A DNA stretch of 64,000 nucleotides. Source: Glandiceps talaboti. Its lineage: Eukaryota > Hemichordata > Enteropneusta > Spengelidae. Where the stretch lies: contig NC_135570.1 in the NCBI RefSeq assembly GCF_964340395.1, positions 4,282,822-4,346,821 of the forward strand. Direction: 5' to 3'. The notes under the pieces were generated by a model. The model saw nothing but the letters and a program-made list of their open reading frames with translations. It was not told where the DNA came from and did not search any database. Shown one piece after another: positions 1 through 61,800 of the stretch. Position 1 is the stretch's first letter. Each line of letters starts with the position of its first letter. The position numbers and the translations under genes were made by a program.

Positions 1-3000
1 TGAATGGAACATTGAAAATGAGACCTAGTACATCGTCCAAATTACAAACCTTGAGTCCTGGGAAAGGTAATGATGGAATCGAGTCTCAAAGAAAAGCAGA
101 TGCTAGGACAATCACAGAATATATAAATAAAGAATGTAATGTCAATCTAGTTAGAAGCACAACTAGAGATAATCTCACAGGTAAGGCACTTCTACAGTAA
201 TTTGGATGTTTCACTAACAGTTTTGATATGTATGTTAAAAATTATGGGTTCTTGAGAGTCATTTCATGATTTTACATCATCGACAGTGACACATCATGGT
301 TGAACAATGAATATTCATGAGAGATGTTTTACACTGAATGGATAGTCACTTAGAATTCATGAATATTCATTGTTCAACCACTAATAATCATTTCTGCTGA
401 CTCCCATGATGCAATGTCCCATAGCAAAGAAAAGGTTGGTACTGAAAGGAATAAGCACTTAGGAGTCATGAATATTCATTGTTCAACCATGAATAATTAT
501 TTCTGTTGACTCCCATGATGCAGTGTGGTCAACAGCAAAGATACCCTTTAAATGCACAAGATCAACTTGATGTTTCTGTGAGATCACAAGTAATTGTAGG
601 TGATATAAAATCATGAAATGACTCTTCAGAACCCATAGTTTATGAAAATGACTTTGTTTCCTGAAGTGGCACCCCCTTTAAGTTTGAAAAAGAGGATTAA
701 TGTGATCCTTTCCCAAACACAAAATTTATAAAATATTATAGTTTTAAAACTGTTTGTACTGAGAATTTTACTCAAATCTTCCCTTGTGTATGTAGGGTTC
801 AGTATTAAGCCTTAAGCTACTAGTAACACTACACCCTTTCTTTTGTTTCCCAGTTTTTCCCCTGGGAAATGTTAATATTACATTTTTTTTTCATAAGTTT
901 ATATAATATTAGAATTCCTTTGTCACTTGGTTGTATGGTTATGGACAATAAGTATTCATCTAACTCACAAAGCTTATGGGTAAATATACCACAACATTAT
1001 AACCACAACAAGGGAAATACATTCCACAATTGTTATTGTTCATTAACGTGTCATAACATTGATTTCACATAGAGATGAAAAACTTAGAGAATGCAAAATG
1101 TACAATATAACAAGACGACGTCATGGTTAAAAACTGCAAGTAAGGTTTAAAAACTACAATTATATCAATTCATATTGTGAGAATTGTGTCAGCAAAATTA
1201 ACGTGAGAGGACACAGGGTGATAAGTGAGATCATTTCAACCACCAACAATTGTCTCACCCAACCCCCACCCCCCCCAACCCCACTTTCCACCTCCTCCTA
1301 CTTGTGAGAAAATTGATTAAAGTAATGAAGATACCCCTGACAATATAAAACATTAAATGTGAAAGTTTAGAACTCTGAATACACAGAGTTAAACCCCAAT
1401 GTTTGAATCCCACAGTCTCAGATTACTGCTATCCTATCAGTTAAGCCATAGGGATTAACTTGAATCAATCCTTCCGTTCAGGACCAACTGTTTCTATAGC
1501 TCTGCAACAATACTGTGTTTCTCACCAATGATAGGACATTGCCCTTTATTTATAGCAGTATATTTTTGTCACTTGTTTCACTGTTAACACAATTTATCAA
1601 GTTACAAAGGTCAATGTGAAATGATAAATGATGTATTGATATAACATCTTGTTCATAACTCCGTAGACTTAATGTAAATATACGTTGCAAGCCTTGTAAA
1701 TGACAGGCCCCACACACCTTGCGCAGTGAATTCTCTGTACCTGTAATAATGGGGGGCAGTATAGTCAACTACTGGACAGCCGACTGTTGACATAAACATA
1801 CTGCTTTACTGCTACTGGTGTAAATCTATGAAAAATTGTGTGTTTTCTGTGCCCACTGATATCTTATTTGTGTATTTTTGTCACCAGGTAATACTAGTGG
1901 TAAGTCCAGGGTAATGTCAGGGACAATATCACTACAGGCTCTTACAGGTGCTACAACTACAGAACGCATTGCTACTCCTGAAGGCAGGAAGTCCCTTATA
2001 GTAAGTACATATTGTATTGTATTGTCAGTATCATGTCATAGATTTCCGACCTAGTATAAATAAAGCCTCCCACAATGATACTGGTCTTTCTAACACTTTA
2101 TTACACAGACACAACAATCACGTTTTTAACTATGTGATGTTTACCCATTCAGTTTGTTCAGTGTTTGATCTCGATCTTTTAACCATTTCCATATCAACAC
2201 AACGCCAAAACAACATGGCTTCCCATACCCAGCATGTATCAACACAACGCCAAAACAACATGGCTTCCCATACCCAGCATGCATCAACACAACGCCAAAA
2301 CAACATGGCTTCCCATACCCAGCATGTATCAACACAACGCCAAAACAACATGGCTTCCCATACCCAGCATGTATCAACACAACGCCAAAACAACATGGCT
2401 TCCCATACCCAGCATGCATCAACACAACGCCAAAACAACATGGCTTCCCATACCCAGCATGTATCAACACAACGCCAAAACAACATGGCTTCCCATACCC
2501 AGCATGTATCAACACAACGCCAAAACAACATGGCTTCCCATACCCAGCATGCATCAACACAACGCCAAAACAACATGGCTTCCCATACCCAGCATGCATC
2601 AACACAACGCCAAAACAACATGGCTTCCCATACCCAGCATGTATCAACACAACGCCAAAACAACATGGCTTCCCATACCCAGCATGCATCAACACAACGC
2701 CAAAACAACATGGCTTCCCATACCCAGCATGCATCAACACAACACCAAAACTAATATGGCTTCCCATACCCAGCATGCATCAACACAACACCAAAACTAA
2801 CATGGCTTCCCATACCCAGCATGCATCAACCAGCCAACCCTATTTACAACCTGTGGAGGCGCACTGCCCCAGAGACCATCTCAGAAACAAATGAAAGACC
2901 CAGGAGGTAATAAAGTAAAGGGAGAATAAATCAAATTGATTGCTGTATTTCTGTGGATATGTTTATCAAGATTTAGTCTGTAAGGCATGCCATGTCATGA

Positions 3001-7109: not shown

Positions 7110-7872
7110 GTTGCACCGTCATGGCCAGTGTACCCTCTAATGTTAGCCAAACTTTGTTGTTGTGAGTCAAAATGATAAAAACTGGCATTTCTTGTAAGTC
7201 ACCACATAGTAAGATATAGGGGAACACTAAATTTTGGTGCGTCACTAGAAATTGTGTGTGTCAGTGGTGCGTCAAATTGGCTTAGAGGGCACACTGGTCA
7301 CCACATATTAAGAGATAGGGGAACACCAAATTTTGGTGTGTCACTAGAAATTGTGTGCATCAGTGGTGCGTCAAATTGGCTTAGAGGGTACACTGGTCAC
7401 CACATAGTAAGAGATAGGGGAACACCAAATTTTGGTGCGTCACTAGAAATTGTGTGCATCAGTGGTGCGTCAAATTGGCTTAGAGGGTACACTGGTCACC
7501 ACATAGTAAGAGATAGGGGAACACCAAATTTTGGTGCTTCACTAGAAATTGTGTGCATCAGTGGCACATCAAATTGGCTTAGAGAGCACACTGGTCACCA
7601 CATAGTAAGAGATAGGGGAACACCAAATTTTGGTGCATCACTAGAAATTGTGTGCATCAGTGGCATGTCAAATTGGCTTAGAGGGTACACTGGTCACCAC
7701 ATAGTAAGAGATAGGGGAACACCAAATTTTGGTGCTTCACTAGAAATTGTGTGCATCAGTGGCGCGTCAAATTGGCTTAGAGGGTACACTGGTCACCACA
7801 TAGTAAGAGATAGGGGAACACCAAATTTTGGTGCTTCACTAGAAATTGTGTGCATCAGTGGCACGTCAAATT
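7110..7872. repeat. 99-bp tandem array with an adjacent inverted single copy (amplified MITE end)
   Basis: From about 7195 to 7872 a 99-bp unit (GTCACTAGAAATTGTGTGCA, then TCAAATTGGCTTAGAGGGTA, then CACTGGTCACCACATAGTAA) repeats nearly seven times. Just upstream at about 7117-7155, CAGTGTACCCTCTAATGTTAGCC is the inverted form of the unit core (GGCT...AGAGGGTACACTGG). One inverted copy facing a direct array is what a MITE would look like if one of its terminal repeats were tandemly amplified. The 253-aa open frame across it is a by-product of the period being a multiple of three. Confidence 0.85.
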
Positions 7873-10019
7873 GGCACACTGTTGATGGCATACCTTACAG
7901 ACTAGGGCAGACCATGCTAGACATATTCTCCATCGTTTCATTTACTGTTTGCATAGGAACATCAAAATACATGAATGTGCTTTCATTTCTGTTGCACAAA
8001 ATTTCATCTTTTTGAGGTTTTCTAATGCCGTTTACCAATACTGTCATATTCTTTTAATTAGTTCCAGAGAGCTAGGGAGCCCTCTTGGAACTATTGGTTT
8101 GCCTGGAACATAATAGGTTCTTGCTTTCTGGACTCGATAGAGGGTATTTTGATCTTACCTCTAGTGTTCAGCATTATCTTAAGATTGAGCTGCATATCTG
8201 TCTGTTCAAGCCAATACGTAAATGAGAGTTGGGATGAAGCGTTTACATTTTACTTAAAGTCATTACAGTGACAATATACACAACACAACACATAAAACCA
8301 GTCAGCCAAACCAGAACTACACAAAGTTACGTTTCATTTAAGATGACAGAACAGTTGATTTTGAAGGGATATGAGAAACACTTTGATTGAACTTGAAAAG
8401 GAATAATTATGTTAATTTCTTGACCCTTGACCCTTACATTGAATATTTAAATTAGCATGAATATTCATCAATTTTTACAAGTATGGCTGACGATGTTTTT
8501 ACTTCTTTAAAGTTTTAATGACATTCTGAAAATCATGTGCATTCAATATAAATTTACAAGATAAATAATGTGAGGTATTGGTTGTGTTTGTGCTGGATCA
8601 TGTAATATTGGTCTTTTGAAGGTTTTACAGCATGTATTTGAATGGACATTGCATAGTACAAGTACATGTATTGCTAAAACCGCAAAGTAGTCCACAACGC
8701 CAAATGCACGACACAACAATGTATATTTTCACACATTGTTACTATGTAAGAATCATACTTTTTTTTGATAATTTAAATGACTCATTCCAAAAAACAAAAA
8801 AAACTAAAAACAGAAATGCATATCAAGGGATTTCAAACCAAACTTCACTGTTCTTCGAGTAGTAACAGTCATGTATAATTTTTGTAAATTAGCAACAAAT
8901 TTTTCGTTCAGATAATTCGAACTTTCTTTAGGGGCCAAGTGTTGTAAATATAACAAATTACACCCAATCATGACGATAATTTTCTGGGCGATCAGAAATT
9001 TGAAATTTAGATCTGTTTTTACAACGAGTTCAGTGTCGAAGCTTGGATTGAAGTTATACCCTTGCAAAGAACACCTGAAATTACAGTATATTACATTAAC
9101 TATTTTTTTGTGAAATCATACCCTGATTAAAAATTATGATACAAGGGCATAATTTGCTTTATTTATGATATGTGTCTAGCATTGCATTCTTTGTTGTTTC
9201 AGTCACATGTGACAAGTGCTAGCATCCTCATTTGTGGACTAGTTTCTATTTGAACTGTCTTGCCTTGCACACATCCACACCTGACTGAGTGCCTACAAAA
9301 ACCACTTAAAAATCTGAAAAATCAGGTGAGAAATATGATAAATAAAGCGAATTAAACCTTGCCAATTATTAAATAGATCATCCCAGACATCATGTTACTG
9401 TTATGGTTTTGAAAGGGGGTATTTTATAACAGCCATTGGGGACAGAATTAAAGTGATAACTTTCGTAAATAGTTTTACAATTTCTTACATAAGAGAAATA
9501 TGGTATATTACCAGTCCTATCAGGTGCCGGTTATAACTCATTTGTGTAGCCATTGATTTTAATATCACCTCTGTAGTGTGTGTTTGTGTGTGTGAAATGT
9601 TTTTCTGTTCATACTGCATGTTGTTGTCATTGTTTATAATGTAACACTTTACTCTCTCTCTTTATCTTGTTTTAACAATTGCATACATTGTAATTGCAAT
9701 TAAATCACTGAAAAAAAAAAGAATGTGTATAAACTTGAAAAAAATTATTGGTTTTTTGTTCCCAGAAATAAATTTCATGGGTTGTTTTTATAAAAACAAT
9801 TAATGTGTATGTGTAATTTTTCATGTGAGGTCCTTACATGAATTCAATGATGATTGTTTGATAGTGATATTAAATTGATATTGATTTCTTCCAGATTTGA
9901 CTAACAGTCATTGCTGGTGGCATTCCTCACACTTGGTGCAACAGAACTGGGAACACTTTCAAAGGTGAATCTTACATGTGCAGAGCTTACCTACCTACCT
10001 AACTTACTCTACAAACAAC

Positions 10020-28065: not shown

Positions 28066-29023
28066 ATGGCTACGTCGTCGAGTGTGTGTAGATGTTGGGA
28101 CGTCCTGCTTGTTCTTTGTCTTTTCTTCGGAGTATGCAAGCCCGAAAGAACACTTGAAATGGTACACGTGGTAGGTTCCATTACTTTAGCTAACATTTTT
28201 GTTCCCAAATTACCGAAAATATTTGCATGTAACGTACAACGTTGCGCCAACAATCCAACATGTTCGAGTTCAATGCAGTATGGCCCTGCCCGTCGGCGTG
28301 TACGTGTTTTGTATGTTGACCCAGCATGTGACCTATCGTATGGTTGTTACAAACACGGAAATAGAAACTAAGAAACGCAAATATGAATCCCTTCATCATG
28401 TATTTCATAATCTTTTTTATTGTCACTGGAGTACAATGTCCTTATTTACTCCAGGTTTACTATTAGGTTGATCCTGTAGCAAGCTCAGATATTTTCAGTC
28501 GCTAAATATTCATGTAAAATTGAGACAGTAAAATACTGGTCAAACGATTTCAACTGCCAACGCAGTTTACAACAGAATTGGTTAAAGTAATTAATAATAT
28601 TAAGAACGGAATGAAAACCACAATCCTTGACCTAGTCTCAGCCTTGGAATGGTTGTGAAGTAATTTCCCTTTAGGGTAAAGTTACTTTGAACAGCACGGC
28701 TTGTAGCCCAACCAATATATTTAGTCACACCAATTTACACACTAAAATTGCCACACATAAATATATCACACGGAGCGTAATTACTTACTTGTTTTCACTT
28801 TGCTGTCTGTCCTTCGAGTGCCGGTATTTGCCGATCCGGATGGCATCGTGACTTCTGGCACAGAGGGCGCCATCCGCCACCTGGCTGACAGCTGCACAGG
28901 GGCCTGTGGACTGTCAGCAGGACAGTAGTCGGCAAATACCACACTCTCCCCCGTCCTAATGAAAAAGGCCCAACTGGGGAGGGGGGGAAATTGTTCCTCC
29001 GACACCATCCCATTCTATTTTAA

Positions 29024-29054
<31 letters not shown>

Positions 29055-32000
29055 TCTCTTCTTTTTTTTTTTCTTTGTCATGCCCCTACTAAATTTAAAC
29101 GGTCAGCCCAGGGTGTTGGAATTCTGGATGTTCCCTATTCGCCTATTTGCTGCCACAGCCCAACTTTCCCCACTGGTGGAATAGAAAGGCTACCCTCGTT
29201 CTAGAAGCCATACAGGTGCCTGGTGTTCCTTACCGTGAGATCTAGCACTTGTGCAAGTGTGATCCCACGGCAGTCGGCTACCAAGGCGGCCACATCTCCA
29301 ATATAGATAGGAGTGTTTAGCCTTGGGTTACCCGGTACAGGGAGGTATGGCGAATCAGTCTCTATGAGGAGGCGATTCCCCGGCACCACCCTGAGGGCTT
29401 CCTTCTGAAGGGGGGAGAATCTACTTACCATGGCTGTATAACCAAAGTAGCAGTGAGGGAACGCCTCAGTCCACTGCCTCACCAATGCTGGTGAGCCCAG
29501 GAAACAGTGCAGGTGTATGGGTTGGGCCAAGTCACAGTGGGTCCTAACTAATTGTAGGGCCCTCTGGCTTGGTCCTGCCGCACATACATCACTGCTTGCT
29601 CCCCGGAGGTGTAAAACCAAGGGTTTCCCTGGGGTGCACATTTGCAATGCCTGGCATAGGACGACTTCCTGATCCTGCCATTTTTTTTTGGCTACGGACC
29701 AGTCTAATCCGACCTCCCCTAGAGCTGCCACATGGGGCGATCGGACCAGTTCCCTCAGTCGATGTAATGACTGGGGTGCCACCCTACCGGCATGCTTTGG
29801 ATGTATTCCAACCGCTACCTTCCAACGGTTGTTGGCGGAAGGCAGAGTTGGGTATGACCCGGGGTCACAGTAAACCTCGACACCACCCAATACCTCTACC
29901 ATATGTTTTGGTTTGGGTACTGAGGGTGCCGAGACTACCTCATCAGAATTAGAGGGGCGACGCTGGCCAGTCCGCCAGGCTGACAGGATACGATCCAAGT
30001 GGAAATGTGAATCGTACGCTCTCAGTCGTGCGGGTGGCAACGAACCCCTCAAACTTTGACCGGGCACACTTACACCCTGCGAAGGGGGAGCTGGTGTAGC
30101 TTGCTCCACCACATTCGCCCGTGCACTCCTCTCTCCCTCTACTGGCGGCGCACTGACGGTTGCGGATCGCGCGGATCGCGGTTGACCCCCTCGTTGTGAC
30201 ATTACAGAAGGCGAGGCAGTCATTCTTACCAGTTGGCCAACCGATACAGGCTCACCAAACATGGTTGCAAATGCTGCCCGTTGCTCCTCTGTAAGAAACA
30301 ACAAGAGTGTCAATATTACCCTCCAATGAACCAACACGGCAGGGGAGTTTGGTGGGCTCAGTGTGAACCTTTGTGGGATGGGAGCCCATCCAAACTCCAT
30401 ACACAACCGGCGCATCACTGGAAGGTAATTGTCCGTGATCAACGCGCCTGCTGGTATGCGCAGATGTTCCGCGCTTTTGAGGAGGGACACCAGTTCAACA
30501 GCAGGGTCTGACCCTGGCCTGCCCTCACCCAATATGCAGTCACGCAACATCCTCAGTGCAGAGGACACCTTGTTCCTGACCATTGGGTGGTCACTCTCCC
30601 AAAGTGCTGGGGGAATATGCTTAAGGAACATGTGTTCCTTCAATTTTTTGCATTTCTCCCCACACTCTGGAATTGGACAAAGGACAGTGCCCGGGGGCAT
30701 CCTGCCTCGTGTCTGAGGAGGGTGTATGAGGGGGCTGGGTTCTGCTGGGTTCGACCGGCCTTTGCCAACCGTCACCCTGCGAGGTCCAACCTCACCCTCA
30801 CTACGAAATGTGACTTTCATCTCAGAGAACTTCCGTCCTGGAGAAATGGCCCTTTCCTTGGGAGTCCCCACAGGGGGGCTCACCTCAGAACTGACTCTTG
30901 GGTTTGTCTGACCAGGGTTTTTCTTCCTCCTACGCCTACGTGATTTACTAATCCCTCTGGTTACTTCAGGCTGCCCTTCAGTTAACCTTTGGGATGAAAC
31001 CATTGTAGGGGGGGAAGCTAAAGCCCTTGCCCTACGCCCCCGCTTCTCTCTGGCTGTTCCCCGAGACCTAGTCTAGGACTGGTAGTACTTATGGTAACCC
31101 TAGGGGTGGGTACAGTGTAGGGAGTAGGTTACCAGGCCCCCCGCAACTAAATACAATCGCTACTCCAAATATACCATGGGGGAGGCCGGAACAACAATAC
31201 ATGTACCCACCGACTTATCCATATTTATCTTACCCCTACTACCGTTCTACTAACTACTAACGTTCTATTTTTCTTCCTCCTACGCCTACGTGATTTACTA
31301 ATCCCTCTGGTTACTTCAGGCTGCCCTTCAGTTAACCTTTGGGATGAAACCATTGTAGGGGGGGAAGCTAAAGCCCTTGCCCTACGCCCCCGCTTCTCTC
31401 TGGCTGTTCCCCGAGACCTCCTCCTCCTACGCCTTACCCTTTGAGAAGAGTCCTCAGCTGAAATGACTCCACTCTCCCAACCCATCGGAAACTCCTCCCT
31501 ATTGGGAATGGCAACCGAGGGCGGGGAAGAGGGGCCCTCCAGTGCAGGCATCTCATCCTCAATTTCATGGCTGGCCGGTAGGAAGCAGCCTCCCTCACTC
31601 GCCTCAACTACCTCCTCAAGGGGGGCAGCCGCTGCGAGGGAAAGGTGTTCCTCCAGCGCTGATGGGTCACCCAGAGGCCGGCTGTCCTCAAAAGAGGGAA
31701 CCAACCCCGAGTGATCCATCTGTGCCACATCTGTCCCCTCTGGTGGCAGTTCCTTTTGATTATGGACTACTGGCAGGACAGCTTCAAGGGCTGCCCCTTG
31801 CGACTGGTCTGAGTGCTCAGATGGTCGCTGCCAGCTCTCCACAATCTCTGGGAACTTGGTCCGATAATCTTTGACCATGCCATCATCTGGGACAGAGTAG
31901 TCAGCCACATACCTTTTTTTGGGTTTAGGCGTCTCTTGCCACCTCATTTGACGCCTGCTAGTATGGATTAGATTGGCGTCAATCCAAGTACGATCAATGC

Positions 32001-35000
32001 CCAGCCGCAAGTCCGCTTCCTGTCGGATCTTGGAAACCCAGTACCAATTCCCAACACGCCTGGCTATTTGATACTGACCTTTTAGGGCCTGCTTTTTCTC
32101 AATTAGGGGGGAGGTGGCGAGTGCATCGGTGAGTCTGGACCAGGTCATCAGGACCTTCATCCTCGTGGACCGCTGCACTCTCCGCAAGGCCTCCTCCCCG
32201 GTTTCCGGTTTTCGGTCTTGTTCCTTGCGGCTGGCTCCCGGCACTCTTTCTTGCTGCCACTCCCTCTTTGTTGGGCTGCTGTCGTTCATTTTTAATTCTT
32301 GTGATATGTCTCTAAGGGATAAAGGTAATTCCATGCAACAGATTATTTACACGTCGGACAAGTGTACTCCTTAATTTTCTGAGCTTCACGCGAGGTTACC
32401 GCCACACAGGTCCCATGATACCACTCATAACAGCTGTCACACTGTATCATGAATTCGCCTCTGTAGGGCTTCCTGCATGTGCAATACAATACAGTATCGT
32501 TTGCATCAGAAACTAAGGGTTTACCCTGGCTATGCTTATTGAGATTATTTTTGAATCTTAAGATCCATGAGGGTTTGTCTCGACTTTTGCATAATTTAAT
32601 CCGGTCATGGTTTGCTGTCACGATGGCACGCTGGAACTTAATCTTATATAAGTATGGGGTTAACTTAGTGATGATTAGCCCAGGGCCTTTCCAAGGTTGA
32701 CTAAGTTTACGTGACTTACCCTTTGCTGTTGCTGATTCGAGGATATAAACATAATCACCTACCTTATACGGATGCATGTTTACCCTCAAATCATAATCCC
32801 TTTTCATTCTCTCTTGTGAGGATTTCAGAATGGACCTGGCAACTTCGTGTGCTGTATGTATGGCTCTCTCAAGGTCAGTGATATATTGGATCTGGCCTTG
32901 GGGGGAGTCAGTGTCCTCCTCCTTGATGTTGAATATGAGGTCCGCCGGCTGGTTGATCTCACGGCCCAACATCAATTTGTTTGGTGTGAAGCCAGTACTC
33001 CTATTAACACATGACCTCAGGGCCCCTGCAATCTGTGGCAAGTACAGATCCCAATCTGTTTGAGATTTGCTGACAAAACACCTTACTGCATCCATGAGCG
33101 TCCTGTTGAAGCGCTCGACTTGGCCATTGGCAGATGGTCTGTATGGTGTTGTCCTAGCTTTGTGGATCTGCAACACTTCACAGATTGCGGTGAACAGCTT
33201 ACTCTCGAAGTTCGGTCCTTGATCTGAAAAAATCTCAAATGGGTAGCCAAAACGTGAAAAGAAACCATTCACAGCTGCTTGGGCTGTTACCTCAGCAGTC
33301 TGAGATGGCAGGGGAATACATTCCACCCATTTCGTGAATTGGTCTACCATCATGAGAATATATTCATTACCCGCAGTCGTTTTAGGTAATGGTCCCAAAA
33401 AATCTAGATGAACCCTTTCCATTGGTGAACCAGCATGATATTGGGTGAGTTGGCATTTAGCCTTCCTCACTGGTTTTTTGCTTTTATTGCAGATAGGGCA
33501 GGAAGAAATAAAGTGGTTGATATCCTTGGACATACCATGCCAAAAGTATTTTTCCCGCACCTTGGCCCTTGTTCTGGTCATACCCTGATGGCCAGCAGCC
33601 GGAATATCATGGTGTAATGTGATAAGTTCGGTCTGCATAGCTCCCGGGACAACCAGAACTGCAAGATTGTCATCAATTCCCTTTTTCTTTATAACCCCGC
33701 CGTCTAGGTAAAAAAGGTCTCTATTTATCCAATAGTATTTCCTAGAAGGGGAAGCCAAAAAGATGTCCTTATCCCTGGGTTTAGTTCCTACTTTTAGCCA
33801 TTGCAGAAGGTCTTGTAGATTTGGGTCTTTCCCCTGGGCCTCCTCAATATCAACATCCTGATACCCCAGAAATGACATACCAGTGTTTTTCCCCCTAAAT
33901 CTGGTGACTACACAAAGTCGGGGGCCTGGTTCAGATATTTTCACTATGTCAATATCAGGGTATAAACTATCGTATAAACTATCGTTGGGTTGAGAGATGC
34001 TCTCAGGGTCCCAATTAACTTTCTGGTCAGGCTCCCAGGGCCAGAGTGGATGATGATTATGGACACCTACCTGAGAAGTGACAGAATCTTGCATAGGCCT
34101 TACCAATTCACACTTAGGTTCATTAAGAACTTCTTCCAAGGGGGACACCGCTGCAAGAGGGATCACGTCATCCACATCTTCCTGGAATTTGTACCAATTA
34201 CAGTGAGCCCTAGTGCAGTACGGACATCCACCACAGGGAAGGTTCTCTGGATTCACCTGAAATGAAAAGTCTGGACAAGGGTTGTCATGGTACATGCGGG
34301 AGAGAGCATCAGCATTGACGTGCTTACTACCTGGACGATGTTGAACAGTTAAGTGGTACTGACTCAATTCTTCCAACCATCTGGCTATTTGGCCTTGTGG
34401 CTCCTTAAAGCGCAGTAACCACGTTAAACTATTATGGTCCGTTCTTACAGTGAAGTAGTTGCCCAGCAAGTAGTGTTTAAACTGCCGAGTAAACCTAATC
34501 ACTGCAAGTAATTCTTTTCTAGTAGTGCAGTAACGCCTCTGCTCTGCTGTCAAGGAATAGCTACCATATGAAACTACCCTTTCCACCCCGTCTTGAACCT
34601 GAAGAAGTTCTGCACCTATGGCAAAATCTGAAGCATCAGTGTCCAGAATGAATGGATCCTGACGGTTAGCGAGAGTTATTACGGGGGCCGAAGATAGTGC
34701 TAATTTGATTTGTTCAAAAGCATCAGTATGCTCCTGGCCCCAACTGAATGGCTTCTCACCCGTCAGACAATACAATGGAATGGCCATTTTGGCTAAATCT
34801 TTAATGAAAGCACGGTGATAGTTGGCAAAGCCTAAGAATCTTTGGACTCCCCTAACATTCTTTGGAATGGGCCAGTCCCTGATAACTTTTATTGATTCCT
34901 GTTCTAGTTCGACCTTACCATCCTTCACTATGCGTCCTAGGAAGACAACTTGTCTCTGAAATAGCTCACACTTGCGGGGCTTCAGTTTTAATTGAAACTC

Positions 35001-38000
35001 TCGCAGTCGCTCAAATACCATCCTGAGGTTACACAGGTGATTTTCAAAGCAAGTGCCCAACACTAGTATATCATCAAGAAATGCCAATACAATGTCCCAT
35101 TCTAACCCTCTTAGCACTAAGTTCATGACCCTTGAAAAAGTCGCTGGGGCATTGCAGAGTCCAAATGGCATACGAGTAAATTCATATAAACCGTACTTGG
35201 TAGTAAAAGCGGTTTTCTTACAATCGGCTGCATTGATTTTAACTTGCCAGTAAGCCGAGTTTGCATCTAATTTTGTATACCAAGAGTGACCCGACAATGC
35301 ATCAAAGCACTCATCAACAAGTGGGAGGGGGAATACGTCTTTCATGGTGTTTTGATTCAAAGACCTATAGTCAATGCACCATCGGACGCTTCCATCTCTC
35401 TTCCTTACAAGAACAGGTGCGGAAGCCCAATCAGAAGTCGACGGACGGATTACCTTAGAATCTAACATTTTATTTAAATGAGCTTCTTCCTCATTGGCAA
35501 AACACATGGGGGTTCTCCTCATGCGCTCTTTACTGGGCCTCGCATCACCAGTGTCGATTTCGTGTTCAAGGGCCGTAAAGTTGCCAAGGTCGAAGTCATT
35601 CTTAGCGAAAACATCTGAATTTTCATACAGTAATTGTTTTACCTGTTTCGCTTGTTCCAGATTTAAGTTGGATATAGACCTTTCATAAAGATCTTGTAGA
35701 TGTTCAGGTATCTGCCAATCCGTGATCGTTTCTGATGTTGGCTCCGGGGCCTTTTCAAAAGGAATGTGGTCAGCCTCGGCTGCCTGTGCAATGACCTTGC
35801 CTTTATGCAAAACCACTGGCTCCACAGACGGGTTAACCACACAAATTTTTGGCATTGATCCTCCTGAATGCAAGGTCTTGGGAACCATAACCTTCAGACC
35901 TTCCACCGGCTCAACTAAGTAGTCAGACATCTGCTCCGAAATGGTACAGGGTAGTCTTACCACTGAGTTGGGGGGAATATCTGTTCTACGGGTCACAGTG
36001 ACCTTTGCTATCCTAGGTGGTGCCGGCCTATTGTCAAAAGACATGCTAATGATCTCAGTCCCTATTTGAAGTCTACCATTTAAAAGATCTAATTTTGCCC
36101 CATTGGATTTAAGGAAATCTAAGCCCAAAAGCATTTCATTCCCAATTGGTGCGACATAGACCTTTTCCCAGAAAGAGCTTTTACCTAATCCAAGTTCTAC
36201 TGGACCTATAATAAAACCCTTCATCTTTAAATCCCTACCAGCAGTTTGCATGGTTACTGATTTGATAACTGGGGGTTTAACTTTGATCTTATTATAAAGC
36301 GTATCTGAAATAATGGTGACTTCAGCAGCTGTGTCAATGACAGCATAACTTGAGTGCCCCTGTACTGAAATTGGAATACTGTACATTGACCCTGACTGCA
36401 ACTGACAAACTGTCACCTCATCAGCATCATTGGCATGAGAGGCTATAATTTGCTCAGCTTGATTTTTTATTTGCTGCAACTTTGGTGAGTCCACACGTTC
36501 TGTCATATCCTCATTGAAAGGGGATGCAGACGAGGGAATACCATTACAAGGACTGGACTGGCCTTTGACTAAACGGGTCAACCCTAGGCCTGGTAAGTTG
36601 ACCCTTTGGTGTTTCCCGAAAAATTGTTAGACCTGGGGGGTGACCGACTACGCATGGGGGAGACTGAAGGACAATCCCTGATGTAATGCTCCATTGACCC
36701 ACAACGGAAGCAACCCTCAGATGTTCGCTTGGGGGAACTTGACCTTTGTGGTGACCTATTCGAAACTAAACTGCCTATGTGTTGCGTCACAGTAGACAGT
36801 TGTTGCGTTAAGTCTGCCAAACAGGATTCTAAGTTCTTTAACCTTCGATCTATATCCCCTACTCTGCTACTCTGGTCACCCGACTTCTCCTGCCTAACAA
36901 CTTGTTGTCCTGTATGGACAGAATTTACTGATAAGGCCTGAGCCCGAACCAAGTCTCCATCAGCATCCATATCAGAGGTTGCGAATCGTACTTGGGGGCG
37001 TGGTGCCCTATCAGAAATGGAGGTGTTTACATACTGGCACCATTTAACCCTTTCTAAAGCCTCCCCTAAAGTGGATGGTTTGAGAATGGCAACAGTGCGG
37101 CCAGCTTCTTTGTCCCAGCAGCTTTGCAAGAACTTTAGGACCATATACTGTTCGACTTCCCTTTTAGGGACACTACTGAAGGCTACAGTAGCGAGGGACA
37201 TAACTCTGTCCGCCCAGTCTCGTAAGGTCTCTGAATGCTCCTGTTTGCACTGCTGAAACTTGATTAAAGCAGTCTCGGGTAGTTCTTGGTCCCCGAATCT
37301 ACGCCCCATATTTTTGACTAAGGTGAAATAGTCAATCTCTGCTTCCTGATCTAATAGGAGAGCGTAGAAATCTCTGGCCTTACCAGTTAAACACCAACAT
37401 AATTGGTCTCTTCTTTCCTGGGCTGTCCATTCAAAACTGTCGGCCAACTTAGTGAAGATGATGTAAAAAGGTCTCCACTTACCCACACCGTCATAAGTTA
37501 CAGTCTTGGGTATTCTGGCCGGCCTATTTGATGGTCCTGCGTACTCCCTCTCTCCCGTACTCCGTGGATGTGGGTAGGGGAGGGGAGTCACAGAAGCTGG
37601 TGCTGTGCCCTGAAAAAGACTAGAGACAGGATGCCCTTGAGGGACCTGGGCAGGGGTGGCCATAACTGGACTTTGCCGGTCAGCACCACCCTGTACTCCA
37701 GTGTCAGGCGAAACTGTATAATCTGACATATGAAATGATGGTAACGGATTCATCGGTGTTGATTGTACACTGGTGCTAGCCACACCACCTCTTACCGGAC
37801 CATCCGAGACATGGGGCATGTACCCTGGGTAGTAGGTAGGGGGTTGTGGTTGTACCATGTACGGCATAAACGGCTGTTGCATTGGCATAGGTTGGTAGTA
37901 GGGGTAAGATAAATATGGATAAGTCGGTGGGTACATGTATTGTTGTTCCGGCCTCCCCCATGGTATATTTGGAGTAGCGATTGTATTTAGTTGCGGGGGG

Positions 38001-41000
38001 CCTGGTAACCTACTCCCTACACTGTACCCACCCCTAGGGTTACCATAAGTACTACCAGTCCTAGACCTAACTGCCGGTTGTCCTTCCGAAGGGTGAACCC
38101 TTGAATCAATAACTCTCACAACAGAATCTATTGTCGGGTCCCCTGTCGGTTGGTAAACACTCGTTGTTGGAGCTGCTGAAGTCATTGTCATTGTCGGCTT
38201 AGTGGTGGTTGTTGTTGTTGTTGTTGTTGTTACTGCTGTTGTTGTTGTTGTTGTTGTTGTTGGTGGTGGTGTAATAGAAGTGTCAACTAAGCCTCCACCA
38301 CCAGTTAATGGGGAAACAGCAGACATGTGGGAACTAGTTGAAAGATCGTATGGTTGATCTGTCGAGGGAGTTAGGGCTGCCGCCATATCTAAGCCTAGAT
38401 TGTCGTCAATTTCTGGCGTGGCTTGTAATGCCGATGCAGGCGTAAAATCAACCCTATTTAAAAAGTCGTTAGAGACTTTAAAATGAGGCAACTCCCTTAA
38501 ATTTTCAAATTTTAAGTCCCCAATGGCGTCTCTAAGATTAATAATGGCTTCAGCAGTTTTCTTACCGATATTCGAAACCGTTAACAGTTCCCTCTGACTA
38601 CAAATATTAATGTAGAGGGGATTGTACTCCATTGTCAGCTTAAAGTACTACCGTTATTTGACGTTAAATACACAAACCCCGGCGACACAACTCTATGGAA
38701 ATGAAGCAAGGTACGTGTAAGTGACTCTGCCTGTATGTAAATCGTCAAACTTCGATAGATTTGAATAGGGCGTTCCCAACAGGTAGACGTCCTAAAAAAA
38801 TTGTTTACCGTTGCTAAATACTAGGTACCAGATATATATACAAGTTAAATTAATTTAACAGGCAATTACCGTGAATACCTTAGATCTAGAACGTGTAAAA
38901 ATACTGTCCTTACTGAGGCTACTAAAGTACCAGAGCAAGTGACAAAAAAAAATTTAGTTTCCAAACGACCCTCTCCTAATCAGACGAAAGCAAAAAAAAC
39001 AAGAATCAGATAGGTTGACTACACTAATTGGTAATCACCCCAGAAAATTTAGTGGTAGCTCAAATTAAAAGAAGGAGTAAGCAAATAATGCAACGAATCG
39101 CCTAAGACGGCTCACAAGATGCTATTGAAATGTGCAAAAATAAATTCGCAGTATCAATGCACTCGGGCCTTTTCAAAGACAAAAAGTTTGCAGAATTTGG
39201 AAAGCAATCGAAATACTAATAAATTAGAAACGAAAACTTTCTAGACGGTTAGTGTACGCTTTTAAATAAATTGTAACCAACCAAAACTGAAAGGTGGATC
39301 GTTGAAAACTGTACAGGCAAAAGAATTTGACAGCGAATATATTACTTCGCCGTGTGTACGTGGCAACGCCCGCTTAGCCTACAAATGCGGCGATTTTTCA
39401 GTGTAGACCAAAAACTTCTCCAATATTAATTTTCACACAATTAGAGAAAAAAAATGATACACTGCAAACCTAACACGCATCAATAAACTAAACTGCTACG
39501 AGTGTAATTGATTTGCAAATATCAATCAGACTACAATTTAATTTATGCGAAAACAAACTCGTCGCGGGAAATTCAAATGCAATGTCGGCGAAAGTCCTTC
39601 GTCAGCAAAGAACACAAATTTCTACTAAATTGAGGTACCGTAGTACGAAGGAAATATCGGAACAAATCGGCATATGACGCTGCGCCAAAGCAGTTTTGCA
39701 ATTTGACACGAACGTCGCCTTTTTATGACTTGTAACCGAACTCTCCGACGCAGTTCGTACTAATCAAATTAGCGAAACAATGCTCAATTTGTAACAAAGA
39801 AATTGTCACCGTAGTGAGAGTACCCTAGTACGAAGAAAGATCGAAACAAGTCGGCATTGACGTAGCGCCGAAGCAATTAGCAATTCGACACAAACGTCGC
39901 CTTTTTTGTGACTTGTAGCCCGAAACCTCCGACGCAGTTCGTACTGTCAAGCCGGCAACAAAATTATCACACAACAAATAATAAACGATTTCCAACGCAA
40001 GCTCGAAAAAGTCGCAGCGCCAGTGAAGTAATTTCCCTTTAGGGTAAAGTTACTTTGAACAGCACGGCTTGTAGCCCAACCAATATATTTAGTCACACCA
40101 ATTTACACACTAAAATTGCCACACATAAATATATCACACGGAGCGTAATTACTTACTTGTTTTCACTTTGCTGTCTGTCCTTCGAGTGCCGGTATTTGCC
40201 GATCCGGATGGCATCGTGACTTCTGGCACAGAGGGCGCCATCCGCCACCTGGCTGACAGCTGCACAGGGGCCTGTGGACTGTCAGCAGGACAGTAGTCGG
40301 CAAATACCACAGTTGAACTATTAATTTGGGCAAGATTTTTTAGGTTGCTTCTCAATTTTAGGGGTAAAATTATGCTCTTAAAATGAAAAACTCTTAACTA
40401 AGGAGCAAAATTGCTCCTAAATGAAAAACTTGTGAGCAAAATAAAATGATTTATACCACAGACTTAGTAAAAAGTTGAATTTTTGTGTAGCAAACTTACA
40501 GTAGAAATGATGTTGGCTTGGTGTTTCACTCGTGGGGCATGTTTTTTTTGGACACAAAGATAGACAAATTTCAACTCTAGACTAAAACAATAACAGAGAC
40601 GCTACACATACAACAGGATCTTGTACCCAATCACATTGAACACTGATAAATAAGCATTGCTATTCTTTCACAGTGCAGTAAAAACGGACTTGGTGATTTT
40701 AATGGCTGCAATTGTGTATTTTCTAACTGATTGTCAACATATCAACTTGACTACTTCTACATTCCCACTGTGCACTGCACCTATGTAACTGTTTCTTTTG
40801 CAATAGAAGTCTGAATGTGTGTAAACAAAATGTCATGTTACATGAATGAAACACCAAACCAAAAGTCATTTGTAATTCTTATCAACGCCATTCAATGTCA
40901 CAGATGCCATGATTTCATATTATAAAACTACAACACATCAATGGCAATTGTAATAGTCTGGATGCCAACATGGTCTCTAACTAAACCACAGGTTAGGGTT

Positions 41001-44000: not shown

Positions 44001-47000
44001 ATAATCAATTCATATTTACCCTGCCCAGTGTGGGAGGTTTATTTTATCAGTAGCTACAGATAAGTTATTATGATAACCACAGATAATACCATAGTCCTTT
44101 GCGTCTGAGCATGCTCAGTGTGGATTGCAAGTTCCCTATTCTAATAGCCTTCTGAAGGTCATCAGAAGACAATGATAAGCAACAACTCAACTAAGCCATC
44201 ATTTTGAGAGCTCTGGAAGGTTAGATGTAGTAGCCTTCATATTGATTGCTATACAGCCATGGAAGGCTTTCCTTAGCAATAAGACAACTGTAAACAGTGT
44301 AGACAATATACTTAGTAGCCAATGTACTGTATATAGTTGTATACATTAATATATTATTTAGTCGTTTTTTAGGCCACAAGTCAAAATGACAATTATAAAA
44401 TTTTAACTAATGAAAAAGAGAATACAGTATAAAAGGTTACAAAATATTTAGCATTGTGTCCAAAAAGCCCAGCAGTGATTGTTCTTTTTGTGTAGGTTGG
44501 CGGGCTTCGGTCTTAGCAAGATCTTCTGATAAAATTTTACCGGGCAGTTATTGAGAGTGAATTAACAATCGCCATTATTTTCTGGTACGGGAGCTCCACT
44601 GCGGAGGACCGACACCTACTAAACCGTGTGATATGTTCAGCCACAGATACTTGTCTGTGGTTCAGCCGAGTGCATTATTGGTGTAAATCTGCCTCATTTA
44701 GATGATATTTACAGGTCTAGGATGAAAAAGAAAACAAAATCGATTCTATCCGATTCTTCCCATCCGGCCAACAATCAGTTCTCCCTTATGCCATCAGAGA
44801 AATGATATCACAAAATCAGAACGTCACAGAAAAAGTTTTTACCCGTCAGCAGTCCGCCAATTAAATGGGACGGACCTTCTAGCCAGATGCTTGTAATTCT
44901 AGTCACTGTTATTGTTAGTGTTTATTTGTGAGTGTTTGTATTTGACTGGTAACTGTTGTTGGATGTTGTATTTAACTGCTATTTTTAGGGTAAGAGCCAA
45001 CATGGTTTCTAATTTGTTTTTTATATATACACTAGTGAATAAACTATGAATTGTTTGTATGTTGTTGAAACTTATAAATTTTTTAAGCAATATCAGGCGT
45101 CCATATAAAATTCTTGACTTAAATCCATAGCTTTGTAAACCAATTTACCAAGATTCCTCAACAAAGTTACACAGATCTATACAGGTAACATGTCTTGTGT
45201 TGTTTGCTCTTGCCAAAACCAGCTTTTTTCATCAACACCTGCAAACACAATATGATCAATTTATAAAATAATATTTCATCTTGTTTATTGCAGCTGTATC
45301 GCCATGGAAACCGGTCTCCGACAAGACATTATCCTAACGATCCAAATCCTATTAGTACGTGGCCACAAGGTCTGGGTCAGTTAACTAACGTAAGTCATAC
45401 ACTACACATCTTTGGAGCAAATATGTTTTGGGATGTTTACAAACATGAATTTGACACTAAAATTTTGAGAAGTTTCATGATTTTTTTCCCAGTATCATTC
45501 GCAATTCCAAGATATGTCTTCGTTTAATCTGTGCTCGTGATTCTCTTTCTGTCCTAAGTTGCTCAGATGGGTCAAAGGTCATGCACATGTTCAAAGATGA
45601 GGATCAAATCAAAACTCTACACAATATTGAAAAAAATCAAGAGTCGAAAGTCTACATCAGTAAAACACAGCAGTCATCCAAGTTATTTGTGCATGTCATT
45701 GGTATTCCAGTCACCAGAACTTTTACTTATATTAAGCAACAAGGGACAGAAAGACAACCAAATCCTTACAAGAAAACAGATCAAACCAAGATATACCTAG
45801 GGAGATAAAAAACGTGAAAAAAAACCATAACATTTTTGCATTTCAGTTTCAAACTCTTGTTTGTAAACATCCCAAAAGACACATACACCAAAGATTTGCA
45901 GCACATGACCACTGGAGCTCCCAGCTTATAAGTACCTGGTACTCTTCTGCCAAATTAGACTACTTTAGTGCCTAACACTAACAAACAGGTCATTGTGGCA
46001 ATGTACTACCGGTAAGTTTTGGATCTAAAGGATATAGTCTCACCAGAGATAGGTAACTGTAACTGTACAATTTATTTACAAAAGGTTCCATTGTTGTCTT
46101 TTTGACTACAGTTATATCGTCATGGTAACCGATCTCCAGCAAGACAATATCCCACAGATCCAAATCCTGTTAGTACATGGCCACAAGGATTTGGTCAGTT
46201 AACAAATGTAAGTTCTGTGTAACTGATACTCGACAGCCAAAGATATAAAAAATGAATCATGGGAGGTACTGCGATAGTTTTTTTGCACTGTGTGTAATAG
46301 AGGACACTGGAAGTGTCACCCACAAATACACTTTAACAGTCTATAATGTTACACATTGTGACTGCGTAAAATTCTTCTTTTTTTTTTCTAAACATTTTTT
46401 GTTTTTTCTAATGTTTAGCACATACAGTTACAACATGAAGTATTTTCATAACCACACGTTATCTCTATTACCACCTATTCACAAGTGAAGAGCTACGTAA
46501 TGGCATGGGTGTGTGTGTGTGTGTGTGGGGGTATTATTTTCACCACGGGTGTGTGGGGGGAAGGGGTGGTATGAGGAGAAACTTTTCACAACCACTTTAT
46601 CACTGCTACAACCCATTCATAAGTCAAAATATGGGGCCTATGTCTTCAATGAAGACTTGTTAGAATGTTAGTGCCAGTAAGAAAATCATAGGACATCCCT
46701 ATTCTAAATTATGTTCCTACTTCCACTACTCCACTACCTGGTGTGAAAATAATAACCCAACCCCCCCTCCCCCCTCGGCTATATTGACTTGTGAATGGGT
46801 TGTAACAGTGATAAAGAGTGGTTCTGAAAATAATACCCCCGCCCTCCCCCTCGCTATATTGACTTGTGAATGGGTTGTAACAGTGATAAAGAGTGGTTCT
46901 GAAAATAATACCCCCGCCCTCCCCCTCGCTATATTGACTTGTGAATGGGTTGTAACAGTGATAAAGAGTGGTTCTGAAAATAATACCCCCACCCTCCCCA

Positions 47001-47798
47001 CCGCTATATTGACTTGTGAATGGGTTGTAACAGTGATAAAGAGTGGTTCTGAAAATAATACCCCCACCCTCCCCCTCGCTATATTGACTTGTGAATGGGT
47101 TGTAACAGTGATAAAGAGTGGTTCTGAAAATAATACCCCCACCCTCCCCCTCGCTATATTTTGACTTGTGAATGGGTTGTAATAGTACTTGATGTAAAAT
47201 ACAGGTTGAATGTCAGTATACAATATCAACTAAACTGCATCATCCCCACACCCACCCCTACCCCATTACCTTTTAATACAAAATGATTGGGCTATAATAC
47301 ATCTGATCATGTTTTACAGTATTGAGTAAACAGATTTAAGCGAATACTTCATACTCTTGCAACAAATTGTTCTGTAGATAATTTTTTCCAGTACTGTACA
47401 TGCAAAATTTAAATGTAAATATAAAAAAATAAATATTTTTACTACCATTGTGTGATATACCATATGGTAAACTGTAAGTAGATTGATAGGATTTTGTGAC
47501 TTCTACATGAACTATAGTAATTGTTTTCTGGGACCAAGAATTTTTAGAAAAAATTGGAAAATTTATTAGGAATTAGTTAGTTTAATAGTTGATGTTGCTT
47601 TTTGATATTATTTGACCCAAAAAAATATAATATGTTCCTTTGAAGTATCAAATACGACATTGTGGATTTCCTTTTGTATGAGAAGTGAAAGGAAACATCT
47701 GGAATTGAGAGGACGTATGTAGGATCAAGGATAGATGAATAGAGATTTGAATTTTAATAGTATTGAATAGTATCACTGTGTAGCAAAATTCAATTTGC

Positions 47799-58833: not shown

Positions 58834-61800
58834 ATGTCTCTAATTTTCTCTAAATTTGTTATTCACCACAGGAGTACTGCTGAATGAAGTGGTTGAACAC
58901 ATGAAAATGAAAGCAGCCTACCCAGACAACCCAGCTTATAAAATGTACATGTATTCTGGGGTAAGTATCATCTACCAAATCTTTTCAATCCTTCCTGTGA
59001 CTCTATTCACTTGATGGACCATATTTTGGCATTATGCAGCAAGTATCTTAATAAAATACAACCCTTGCAGCAGTTTTGTAGAGATGCCTATGATCAGAAC
59101 AGCATTTTATCACGTTGGGCCATTAAAACTGGCTATGTATGTTCATCATGGAAGCACTAAGATTCACAAACAAGTTGTCTTCATCCACTTTTAATTGAGA
59201 ATCAGACATGTTTTGAACACATCACTTGTCCTTCTTCAGTGTCTAACTGGATCTGATAGAATGATCCAATGTATGTCGGTTTGATATCGTGATAAGGAGA
59301 AGACTTTTCAGCACGTTTATAGTCAGTTCTAATTGTCCGCCACTGATAACACAACATTGTGATCACAGGCATCTCTAGACAACTGCTGAAGGGATCTACA
59401 TTGATAGCTATCGTAATTTTGGATTCCCACTATGCCAAATTATACAAATATTCAACATTCATTGTTATAATTGATTTATTTTCTGTTGCCTATTCTAATT
59501 AAAGAATTTGATAATATTCTAAAGCGCTGCACATACAATGAAGAAACAAGTGTTAACGTGAAATGCACCTTGGAAATAAACCCTTTGAACTTTTGCTGTG
59601 AATTTGTTCAAGGAAACTCTTGACTTATTCTCAGTTAAAATTTTTTTTAAAAATAGTGGTCGCCATACATATTTTTGAAATCAAGATAAAAAAAAATAAA
59701 CCATTTTAGAATCCAATATGGCCACCAAATACTGTGGTAACTCTATGGGAAATTACAAGATTGATGATTTCCTTGGAAACAAGATGGTGAAACCCCAAAT
59801 TTCTCAAAAGAACCAGAAGCAAGCTTCCATATGGGAAAGTGTGGAGAGATTTTAAGAATTTTGAATTTCAGTGAAATTTGTCCCAGGTTGCATTCTACGT
59901 TAAAAACGACGCTAGTGAAAGTTCAGTAGTACTAGAATGAGTGCTTTCATCTGGTGTGCCCACTGTTTTATATCTTGTTCATGTTATTCCTTTGTCAGCA
60001 TGATACAACGGTGTCTGGATTCTTGAGTGCAATGACTGTGTTTAATTACATGTGGCCACCAACAGCGTCTTGTGTTATTGTTGAACTTCATAGAGAAGGA
60101 ACGGGGCAAAGGTGATTTTATTGAGTAGTGTTACTATATAATGTACAACCCTTCTCACTGACCTGTTACAACTCAGTGAATGGTCCAACCATAGAATTAC
60201 AACCCTTCTCACTGAACTGTTACAACTCAGTGAATGGTCAAACCACAGAATTACAACCCTTCTCACTAAACTGTTACAACTCAGTGAATGGTCCAACCAC
60301 AGAATTACAACTCTTCTCATTGAACTGTTACAACTCAGTGAATGGTCCGACTATGTAATTACAACCCTTTTCACTGAACTGTTACAACTCAGTGAATGGT
60401 CCAACCACAGAATTACAACCCTTCTCACTGACCTGTTACAACTCAGTGAATGGTCAAACCACAGAATTACAACCCTTCTCACTGAACTGTTACACCTCAG
60501 TGAATGGTCAAACCACAGAATTACAACCCTTCTCACTGAACTGTTACAACTCAGTGAATGGTCAAACCATAGAATTACAACCCTTCTCACTGAACTGTTA
60601 CAACTCAGTGAATGGTCCAACCACAGAATTACAACCCTTCTCACTGACCTGTTACAACTCAGTAACTTTCAATGACATTTGACATTTTCAGATAGATGCA
60701 ACTATTTGTTTAAATTTAAAGAAGAAAGTTAAAACTTAATTCACACTCTGAGTAACACTCTGGATAAAGTTTGTAAGGGCCAGGTCATTCTAAAATTCTT
60801 TACTTTTTCAAGCAAAGAAAAAGAGTATGTGACTATTGGCTGCAAAACATTCAGGTAGGCTGTACAGTGAATAGTATTCTATGCAATGAAGTCTATGATA
60901 AGTAACAGAGACAGTTGACTGCAAAACATTCAGGTAGTCTGTACAGTGAATAGTATTCTATGCAATGAAGTCTGATAAAATCATACACCAAGTTGTAACA
61001 GTTTTGTTAGAAAGGTTGTAATTTCCACTGTATTTCCTAGCTGCATCATTAACTATATAACATGTCTGGGCACTGTCACAAATAACTGTTTCCATGAGTA
61101 CAGTTTTTTCCCAAAAAAATATCACTGCAAGATTTTGTTTTTACACGTTGACCATCATACCTTCTTCACCATCCAATGTTTGCCCACCCTAAATATAGCA
61201 CCAAAAGGGGTGTGCAACGTTTAAGAATCAAAATTTGATATGATTATGTAGATTACCATGGCGACATTCTCAGTAATGAGAATTAGCGTTGCATACTTCA
61301 GTTGAAGAAGAACTTTGTAAGAGTGCCCAAACAGATTCTTTCATTTCAACCACTAATCAATTTGATATTTTTTTTCATTTTTCATTATTGTAACCAGCAT
61401 GATCATACTCTCGCCGGTTTTCTTAGCACACTAAAGTTGTTAGATTATCACCAACCATCGACTGCTTCATGTATTCTTGTAGAATTATATAAAGAAAACT
61501 CATCTCAAAACAGGTGCATATTCTGCTTTTGATACATTCACATATATTTCACAGCTTGTAGTAGATAGGTACAAAATAACTTAAGGGGGAAACCACTCCA
61601 GGAAATAAATGCATTTTCATTAATTAGGATTCTAGAGTCAGTTTATAGTTTTGCATCACCTACAATTACATATGATGTCAGAGAAACATCAAGTTGATAT
61701 TGTCCATCCCTCGTGGGGATTTTTGTTGTGGGCCACATTGCATCATGGGAGTCAGCAGAAATATTTATGCAACAGGTGAAAAATGAATATTCATGATTCC

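What the first reader, a model, noticed from the sequence alone, without database searches (positions are those of the whole stretch)
29201..32334. TatD-family nuclease encoded by an LTR retrotransposon, in the env position
Downstream of pol, on the same strand and inside the LTRs, is a frame whose last 275 residues are a TatD hydrolase with all metal ligands (HxH, E, H, H, D at residues 333/335, 430, 465, 499, 550 of the 3' ORF) plus a C2H2-like finger. Established: TatD proteins are metal-dependent exo/endonucleases in DNA repair and apoptosis. Retrotransposons normally bring only RNase H and integrase. Inference: the element captured a host TatD gene and may use it to process cDNA ends, remove flaps or counter host defence. 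TatD/TATDN2-like gene models are numerous in some invertebrate and fish genomes; I cannot tell whether their link to LTR elements has been described.
Basis: partly seen in the sequence, partly recalled or inferred. Interest (0 to 1): 0.92.

Follow-up and report, generated by a model that had tools for sequence, protein, structure and literature searches.

The report
TatD nuclease gene in LTR retrotransposons
A family of animal LTR retrotransposons carries, where retroviruses keep their envelope gene, a third gene ending in a TatD-type nuclease that natural selection has kept intact in some copies, which suggests that these elements use an enzyme not usually found in them.

Summary
Window 28656-40311 (minus strand) is a Ty3/gypsy-type element: identical 288-nt LTRs, a 4-bp target-site duplication, gag, pol (PR-RT-RH-IN-PHD finger) and a third ORF ending in a TatD domain (Pfam E 7e-36) with all six metal ligands. 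It is no one-off: 29 of 32 TatD loci grouped from the genome search are of this type, and 14 of the 20 seen with about 10 kb around them have gag or pol parts alongside. Two families at 45% TatD identity share the gag-pol-ORF3 plan in recently inserted copies. The TatD domain shows purifying selection (dN/dS 0.19, one pair). Relatives are named from hemichordate, sea urchin, oyster and periwinkle; those put in a tree form one clade next to a TATDN2-like host gene. A splice-acceptor-like site follows pol in five of six junctions, suggesting env-like spliced expression. The window's own ORF3 is broken by a 350-bp rearrangement. Captured nuclease ORF3s are known (bdelloid DEDDy); TatD was not found in the papers searched. 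Function is inferred: probably processing of RNA:DNA hybrids or 3' ends of the element's own intermediates. New variant of a known kind.

The parts
40024..40311 (-). 5' LTR (288 nt), identical to the 3' LTR; starts TG and ends CA on the element strand; GTTG target-site duplication outside
28656..28943 (-). 3' LTR (288 nt), preceded on the element strand by the purine tract GACGGGGGAGAG; GTTG target-site duplication outside
40003..40023 (-). primer-binding-site-like sequence CTGGCGCTGCGA... directly inside the 5' LTR; primer tRNA not identified
   Evidence: sequence; the naming is recalled
36584..38647 (-). gag: HhH-like N-terminus (HHH_3, 25.1 bits, below its cut-off of 27), PNMA-like capsid, CCHC zinc knuckle
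32343..36626 (-). pol: protease, RT, RNase H, integrase, C-terminal PHD finger
31225..32334 (-). ORF3, N-terminal part (369 codons); begins a few nt after the pol stop
29201..31003 (-). ORF3, C-terminal part (600 codons): C2H2-like finger, segment with an invariant W (HW), TatD domain
29204..30028 (-). TatD domain (about residues 326-600 of the 600-aa frame) with all six metal ligands
30918..31419 (.). rearrangement that splits ORF3 in this copy: 152-nt duplication plus an inverted 173-nt piece of gag

Best explanation
The window holds a recently inserted copy of a Ty3/gypsy-type LTR retrotransposon lineage that long ago gained a third ORF in the env position. ORF3 codes for a basic N-terminal region, a C2H2-like finger, a segment with an invariant W, and a group II (HxH) TatD nuclease domain related to animal TATDN2. 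Shown: it is encoded inside the element, it recurs in diverged families with recent insertions, its ligands are conserved, and the one suitable pair shows purifying selection. Inferred: ORF3 is made from a spliced mRNA, as env is. Inferred, and the mechanism I think most likely (about 0.35 by itself): the protein binds the element's nucleic acids through its basic region and finger, and the TatD domain trims RNA in RNA:DNA hybrids or 3' ends of the cDNA before integration, supplementing RNase H.
For: TatD HMM match and ligands. Identical LTRs, TSD, PBS-like and PPT-like sequences. Same gag-pol-ORF3 plan in the window and in the C19 copy, whose TatD is 45% and IN 67% identical to the window's and whose LTRs differ at 1 of 277 positions with an ATAC TSD. 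TatD dN/dS 0.19 (277 codons, dS 0.61) against 0.53 in the rest of ORF3, L009 versus L018. ORF3-type TatDs separated from the cellular and phage-type rows at 98/93, and joined with the TATDN2-like host gene against the other 11 at 100/96. Acceptor-like sites after pol in L009, L018, L026, L021 and L013, with 0.10-0.23 expected per junction. [quoted passage not shown] the original paper is not held).
Against: No activity, expression or splicing data. No donor above threshold was found in the leader of the window or C14 copy; the window family's acceptor is weaker (12 of 18 pyrimidines), and in L013 no ATG follows the acceptor closely. Outside this genome ORF3 and pol were not seen on one contig; none of the 120 listed pol relatives (of 619) is annotated with TatD. 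Six of 20 loci have TatD without gag or pol matches nearby, and four non-autonomous copies lack the first part of the domain. L058 keeps IN and PHD but shows no ORF3. Decaying copies give dN/dS of 0.50-1.22. No structure model was obtained.
Confidence: 0.8

Rival explanations
1. ORF3 is a counter-defence factor: a TatD nuclease that destroys guide RNAs, guide-target duplexes or other host defence nucleic acids, keeping the element from being silenced in the germ line.
For: Possible separate (spliced-like) expression and a faster-evolving N-terminal part (dN/dS 0.53) fit an accessory protein; helicase domains in retrotransposon polyproteins have been proposed to suppress silencing or to help antiviral defence (PMC6338049, part 1 of 4 of the text seen).
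Against: No sign of rapid evolution in the TatD domain itself (0.19); no data on targets.
Confidence: 0.25
2. The TatD domain acts on DNA damage or integration intermediates (AP endonuclease or 3' exonuclease on cDNA), for instance cleaning abasic sites or 3' ends before or during integration.
For: TATDN1 and TATDN3 show AP-endonuclease and 3' exonuclease activity, and the three E. coli TatD paralogs are AP endonucleases (PMC10085689, abstract and passages seen).
Against: The closest cellular row here is TATDN2-like, the paralog described as acting on RNA in R-loops.
Confidence: 0.2
3. The TatD domain is retained for nucleic-acid binding or packaging, catalysis being unimportant.
For: Some relatives have changed ligands: L020 (H335Y, H465Y, D550N, read by eye), P0010 (H465Y); non-autonomous copies lack the first part of the domain.
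Against: In the 20-row alignment five of six ligand columns hold nothing but the ligand (one of them with a gap) and the sixth has one change.
Confidence: 0.1
4. TatD genes are ordinary host genes, and their position in elements is accidental insertion or annotation noise.
For: Six of 20 TatD loci have no gag or pol match nearby; two of the six (L010, L011) have an LTR of the L009 type.
Against: LTRs with TSDs enclose ORF3 in the window, C20, C14 and C19 copies; the same order recurs in diverged families.
Confidence: 0.02

Closest known systems
Bdelloid rotifer Juno and Vesta LTR retrotransposons with DEDDy exonuclease ORF3 (PMC5408684; passages seen)
   Same: Captured nuclease as ORF3 in place of env, ORF3s in LTR elements typically expressed from spliced messages, element DEDDy ORFs closer to one another than to cellular homologs
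   Different: DEDDy (RNase D-like) exonuclease, not TatD; no TatD is named in the passages seen
Orchid Ty3/gypsy elements with an AlkB-like m6A demethylase ORF (PMC9289625; passages seen)
   Same: Extra ORF coding a nucleic-acid enzyme, retained in a gypsy lineage
   Different: Demethylase, plant host, 25-kb elements
Planarian Burro giant gypsy-like elements (PMC6431247; passages seen)
   Same: Animal gypsy-like element with several extra domains
   Different: Giant polyprotein; no TatD named in the passages seen
Animal TATDN2 (PMC10085689, PMC12709183; passages seen)
   Same: Group II HxH TatD with a long N-terminal extension; groups with the ORF3 TatDs through this genome's TATDN2-like gene
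   Different: Cellular gene; the one seen here has introns and gave no match to the element's finger segment

Membership tests
Ty3/gypsy LTR retrotransposon (Metaviridae) | Paired LTRs, TG..CA, short TSD, PBS and PPT | tested here: met
   the primer tRNA was not identified
Ty3/gypsy LTR retrotransposon (Metaviridae) | pol order protease-RT-RNase H-integrase | tested here: met
Ty3/gypsy LTR retrotransposon (Metaviridae) | RT placed inside the Ty3/gypsy tree | not tested
   no RT tree was built
TatD family (PF01026) | HMM match above the curated cut-off | tested here: met
   124 bits against 27
TatD family (PF01026) | Metal ligands HxH, E, H, H, D | tested here: met
TatD family (PF01026) | Metal-dependent nuclease activity | not testable with these tools
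   needs purified protein
TATDN2 subfamily | Group II HxH motif | tested here: met
   grouping from PMC10085689; TATDN3 shares the motif
TATDN2 subfamily | Clusters with TATDN2 rather than TATDN1, TATDN3 or bacterial TatD | tested here: inconclusive
   100/96 branch joins it with one TATDN2-like host gene; no known TATDN3 and no second TATDN2 in the tree
Bdelloid-type DEDDy ORF3 elements | DEDDy exonuclease in ORF3 | tested here: not met
   at E 0.01 Pfam finds only PF01026 in the C-terminal ORF3 frame and nothing in the N-terminal one
env-bearing LTR element (spliced ORF3) | Splice acceptor before ORF3 and donor upstream | tested here: inconclusive
   acceptor-like in 5 of 6 junctions, no donor above threshold in the window leader

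The most novel reading that the evidence does not exclude
A whole clade of animal gypsy-type elements, spread through deuterostomes and molluscs, carries a dedicated spliced ORF3 nuclease of TATDN2 descent that acts on the RNA:DNA hybrids of their own replication or on host silencing RNAs, and some hosts keep inactive copies (such as the 1293-codon HhH-TatD frame of L020) as interfering proteins.
Probability: 0.25. Interest if true: 0.85.

Novelty: new variant of a known kind. Interest (0 to 1): 0.66.

Why it matters
Fixation of extra domains in LTR elements is held to be rare (PMC9289625), so a nuclease kept over deep divergence points to a replication or evasion step that the standard RT-RNase H-integrase scheme does not cover. 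It may also explain unnamed TatD-like gene models in invertebrate annotations, and it supplies natural relatives of TATDN2, which one group could not assay for lack of solubility (PMC10085689).

Tried and rejected
Rejected: a one-off host insertion (copies on C14, C19, C20 and others); a frame kept open by chance (931- and 1145-codon frames, ligands and dN/dS). Not settled but not supported: a lineage of the same pol without TatD. Among 17 IN-PHD matches none that looked intact lacked ORF3, yet L058 keeps IN and PHD without ORF3; L053 has ORF3 but its TatD is cut after 24 residues, L057 has the finger-HW part only, L061 N-terminal parts only, L059 and L060 only the last 90 or so residues of TatD, directly at the PHD finger.

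Led nowhere: scans of viral contigs with the window protein (1 pattern match, no relative) and the pol alignment (61, no relative), and of genome contigs with the pol alignment (40, no relative). The viral-contig scan with alignment A1 gave five TatD loci of 23-32% identity, four of which went into the tree and fell on the cellular side. No tRNA genes in the window or in five loci. Equal contig lengths (9947) of an ORF3 relative (P0006) and a pol relative (P0127) hint at one contig, but I guess roughly 0.2 such coincidences by chance (not computed by any search); not used as evidence. No structure or fold search was obtained.

Caveats: the acceptor threshold (13 of 18 pyrimidines) was chosen after seeing the sites; L009 and L018 are one family, so the five junctions are four families. 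One search stopped on a script error after the rows that I cite. Six rows were dropped from the tree beforehand (L011, L017, P0005, P0016, P0018, P0141: partial or near-duplicate), and the broken or near-identical own copies (L015, L016, L022, L026 and others) were not put in. Protein searches scored only the 8000 and 7997 candidates sharing most words; one search listed the best 120 of 619. The host TATDN2-like query is one exon, shorter than the element's domain, so bit scores are not strictly comparable.
Full report
The element. On the minus strand of the window, LTRs at 40024-40311 and 28656-28943 are identical over 288 nt, start TG and end CA on the element strand, and are flanked by the 4-bp duplication GTTG. 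A primer-binding-site-like sequence follows the 5' LTR and a purine tract precedes the 3' LTR. Between them lie gag (38647-36584), pol (36626-32343) and ORF3 (32334-29201). Pfam finds protease, RT, RNase H, integrase and a C-terminal PHD finger in pol, and PNMA-like capsid, zinc knuckle and a weak HhH in gag (HHH_3 at 25.1 bits against a cut-off of 27).

ORF3. The 600-codon frame 31003-29201 ends in a TatD domain (E 7.3e-36). In this copy ORF3 is split by a 350-bp rearrangement made of a 152-nt duplication and an inverted 173-nt piece of gag. The C20 and C14 copies have 931-codon open frames there.

Not a one-off. The Pfam search of the own genome gave 37 TatD matches, which I group by hand into 32 loci; such counts are lower bounds. 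I then fetched 20 of the other 31 with about 10 kb and 11 with 1.1-4.6 kb. Three look like host genes: L012 (long Ser-rich N-terminus, TatD split by an intron, TATDN2-like), L038 (TATDN1-like, several exons) and L047 (matches only the TATDN2-like exon, weakly). The other 28, and the window, match the element's TatD with far higher scores than the TATDN2-like exon (L014 and L015 stand for the window family there). Of these 29, 20 were seen with about 10 kb or more around them (19 fetched plus the window); 14 of the 20 have gag or pol matches on the same stretch and six (L010, L011, L017, L020, L024, L027) do not, though L010 and L011 have an LTR of the L009 type. The C19 copy (L009) has the plan with IN 67%, RT 68% and TatD 45% identical to the window's; its LTRs differ at 1 of 277 positions and its TSD is ATAC. 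The C20 copy (L014) has LTRs identical to the window's and a GCTG duplication but only a short gag remnant; the C14 copy (L015 with L031) has an ATGG duplication, and its integrase matches in two frames. L022, L023, L025 and L028 are shorter copies in which RT and IN were not detected, with gag, part of protease and an incomplete TatD domain between LTR pairs 98.6-100% identical.

Does the same pol exist without TatD? A DNA search with the IN-PHD part of pol gave 17 matches. Seven were already known with TatD; the other ten were fetched downstream. Of all 17, 12 have ORF3-derived sequence downstream and 10 have at least part of TatD (in L053 24 residues, in L059 and L060 about the last 90). 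The five without ORF3 are L054 and L055, which run into another RT about 0.4 kb after the integrase, L056 and L062, which break off within pol, and L058, which keeps IN in two frames and PHD but shows no ORF3 in the 3.7 kb beyond. No intact-looking TatD-less sibling was seen, but L058 is a possible old one.

Selection. Between L009 and L018 the TatD domain has dN 0.113, dS 0.605, ratio 0.19 over 277 codons; the rest of ORF3 has 0.53 over 490 codons. L011 gives 0.20 with both. Truncated or decaying copies compared with close kin have higher ratios (0.50-1.22 for L016 and L022 with L009, L011 and each other; 0.83 for L017 with L026), as expected of dead copies. Between families dS is mostly saturated, so the case for selection rests on one family plus the conserved ligands.

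Relatives elsewhere. The protein search returned 19 relatives, including Ptychodera flava, Crassostrea angulata, Strongylocentrotus purpuratus and Littorina saxatilis; the profile search returned 23, among them P0143, 1493 residues with a CCHC zinc knuckle, a finger-like stretch and TatD, standing for 209 member sequences, which suggests a repeated, gag-like fusion. The pol search gave 619 relatives; of the 120 listed, all but five by my reading carry a PHD finger, and none is annotated with TatD. So outside this genome the link between ORF3 and pol is likely but not shown.

Tree. With 36 rows the ORF3-type TatDs (6 own, 18 external) are separated from 12 cellular or phage-type rows at 98/93, and the TATDN2-like host gene sits next to them, a 100/96 branch cutting off the other 11. 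The sea urchin row (P0018) was not in the tree. The root is for drawing only. One old capture of a TATDN2-like domain fits best; exchange between elements is not excluded.

Expression. After the PHD-finger match, L009, L018, L026, L021 and L013 have a pyrimidine tract followed by CAG, 38-125 nt on; elsewhere on the strand such sites would give 0.10-0.23 per 140 nt. In four of the five an ATG follows within a few nt; in L013 none does in the letters shown. The window family has a weaker site 34 nt after the pol end; the next ATG there opens MNDSSPTKREW, resembling MASDDPEGGPKRSW in L009 and MAEGGDEGSPKRSW in P0002. No donor above my threshold was found in the leader of the window or of the C14 copy; L009's leader stretch has four. 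Spliced expression is therefore an inference.

Known work. Searches for TatD with 'LTR retrotransposon' (two papers), with Gypsy (three), 'TatD DNase' with transposable elements (two), mixed terms (searches listed) and TATDN2 (30 of 69 listed) showed no title or abstract start reporting TatD in such elements; these hits were judged from the listing, and only PMC10085689 and PMC12709183 among the TATDN2 papers were opened. The library holds open-licence PubMed Central papers only; Repbase and most subscription papers were not searched. The closest precedents are bdelloid DEDDy ORF3s, orchid AlkB ORFs and planarian Burro.

Verdict. A real, recurrent, probably selected nuclease ORF of an LTR retrotransposon lineage; new, as far as searched, as to the enzyme, known as to the kind. 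The mechanism remains open; hybrid or 3'-end processing of the element's own intermediates is my first choice at about 0.35.

Noticed in passing
window 32343-32500 (pol C-terminus): PHD finger after the integrase, also in all but five, by my reading, of the 120 listed pol relatives; a possible chromatin-targeting module in place of a chromodomain.
   Followed up: partly
P0048 (database protein): A relative's pol carries a KptA/Tpt1 RNA 2'-phosphotransferase domain, by reading its sequence between integrase and PHD finger.
   Followed up: no
L020 4596-8474: Intact 1293-codon frame joining a gag-like HhH N-terminus (below Pfam's cut-off), tandem repeats and a TatD domain with three of six ligands changed (H335Y, H465Y, D550N); possible domesticated or interfering protein.
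   Followed up: partly
L022, L023, L025, L028: Non-autonomous copies without detected RT and IN but with gag, part of protease and an incomplete TatD; LTR pairs 98.6-100% identical.
   Followed up: partly
L014: Copy with only a gag remnant, yet with LTRs identical to the window's and its own TSD, so it presumably moved with gag supplied in trans.
   Followed up: partly
window 30918-31419: Duplication with an inverted gag piece inside ORF3; looks like template switching during reverse transcription, or an assembly error.
   Followed up: partly
P0143 (database protein): Zinc knuckle, finger-like stretch and TatD in one 1493-residue protein with 209 member sequences: perhaps a second kind of element that shares the ORF3 module.
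   Followed up: partly
window 2005-2894, 7179-8015, 46664-47229, 60142-60675: Open frames made of tandem repeats, in several frames in some places; likely satellites, not genes.
   Followed up: no
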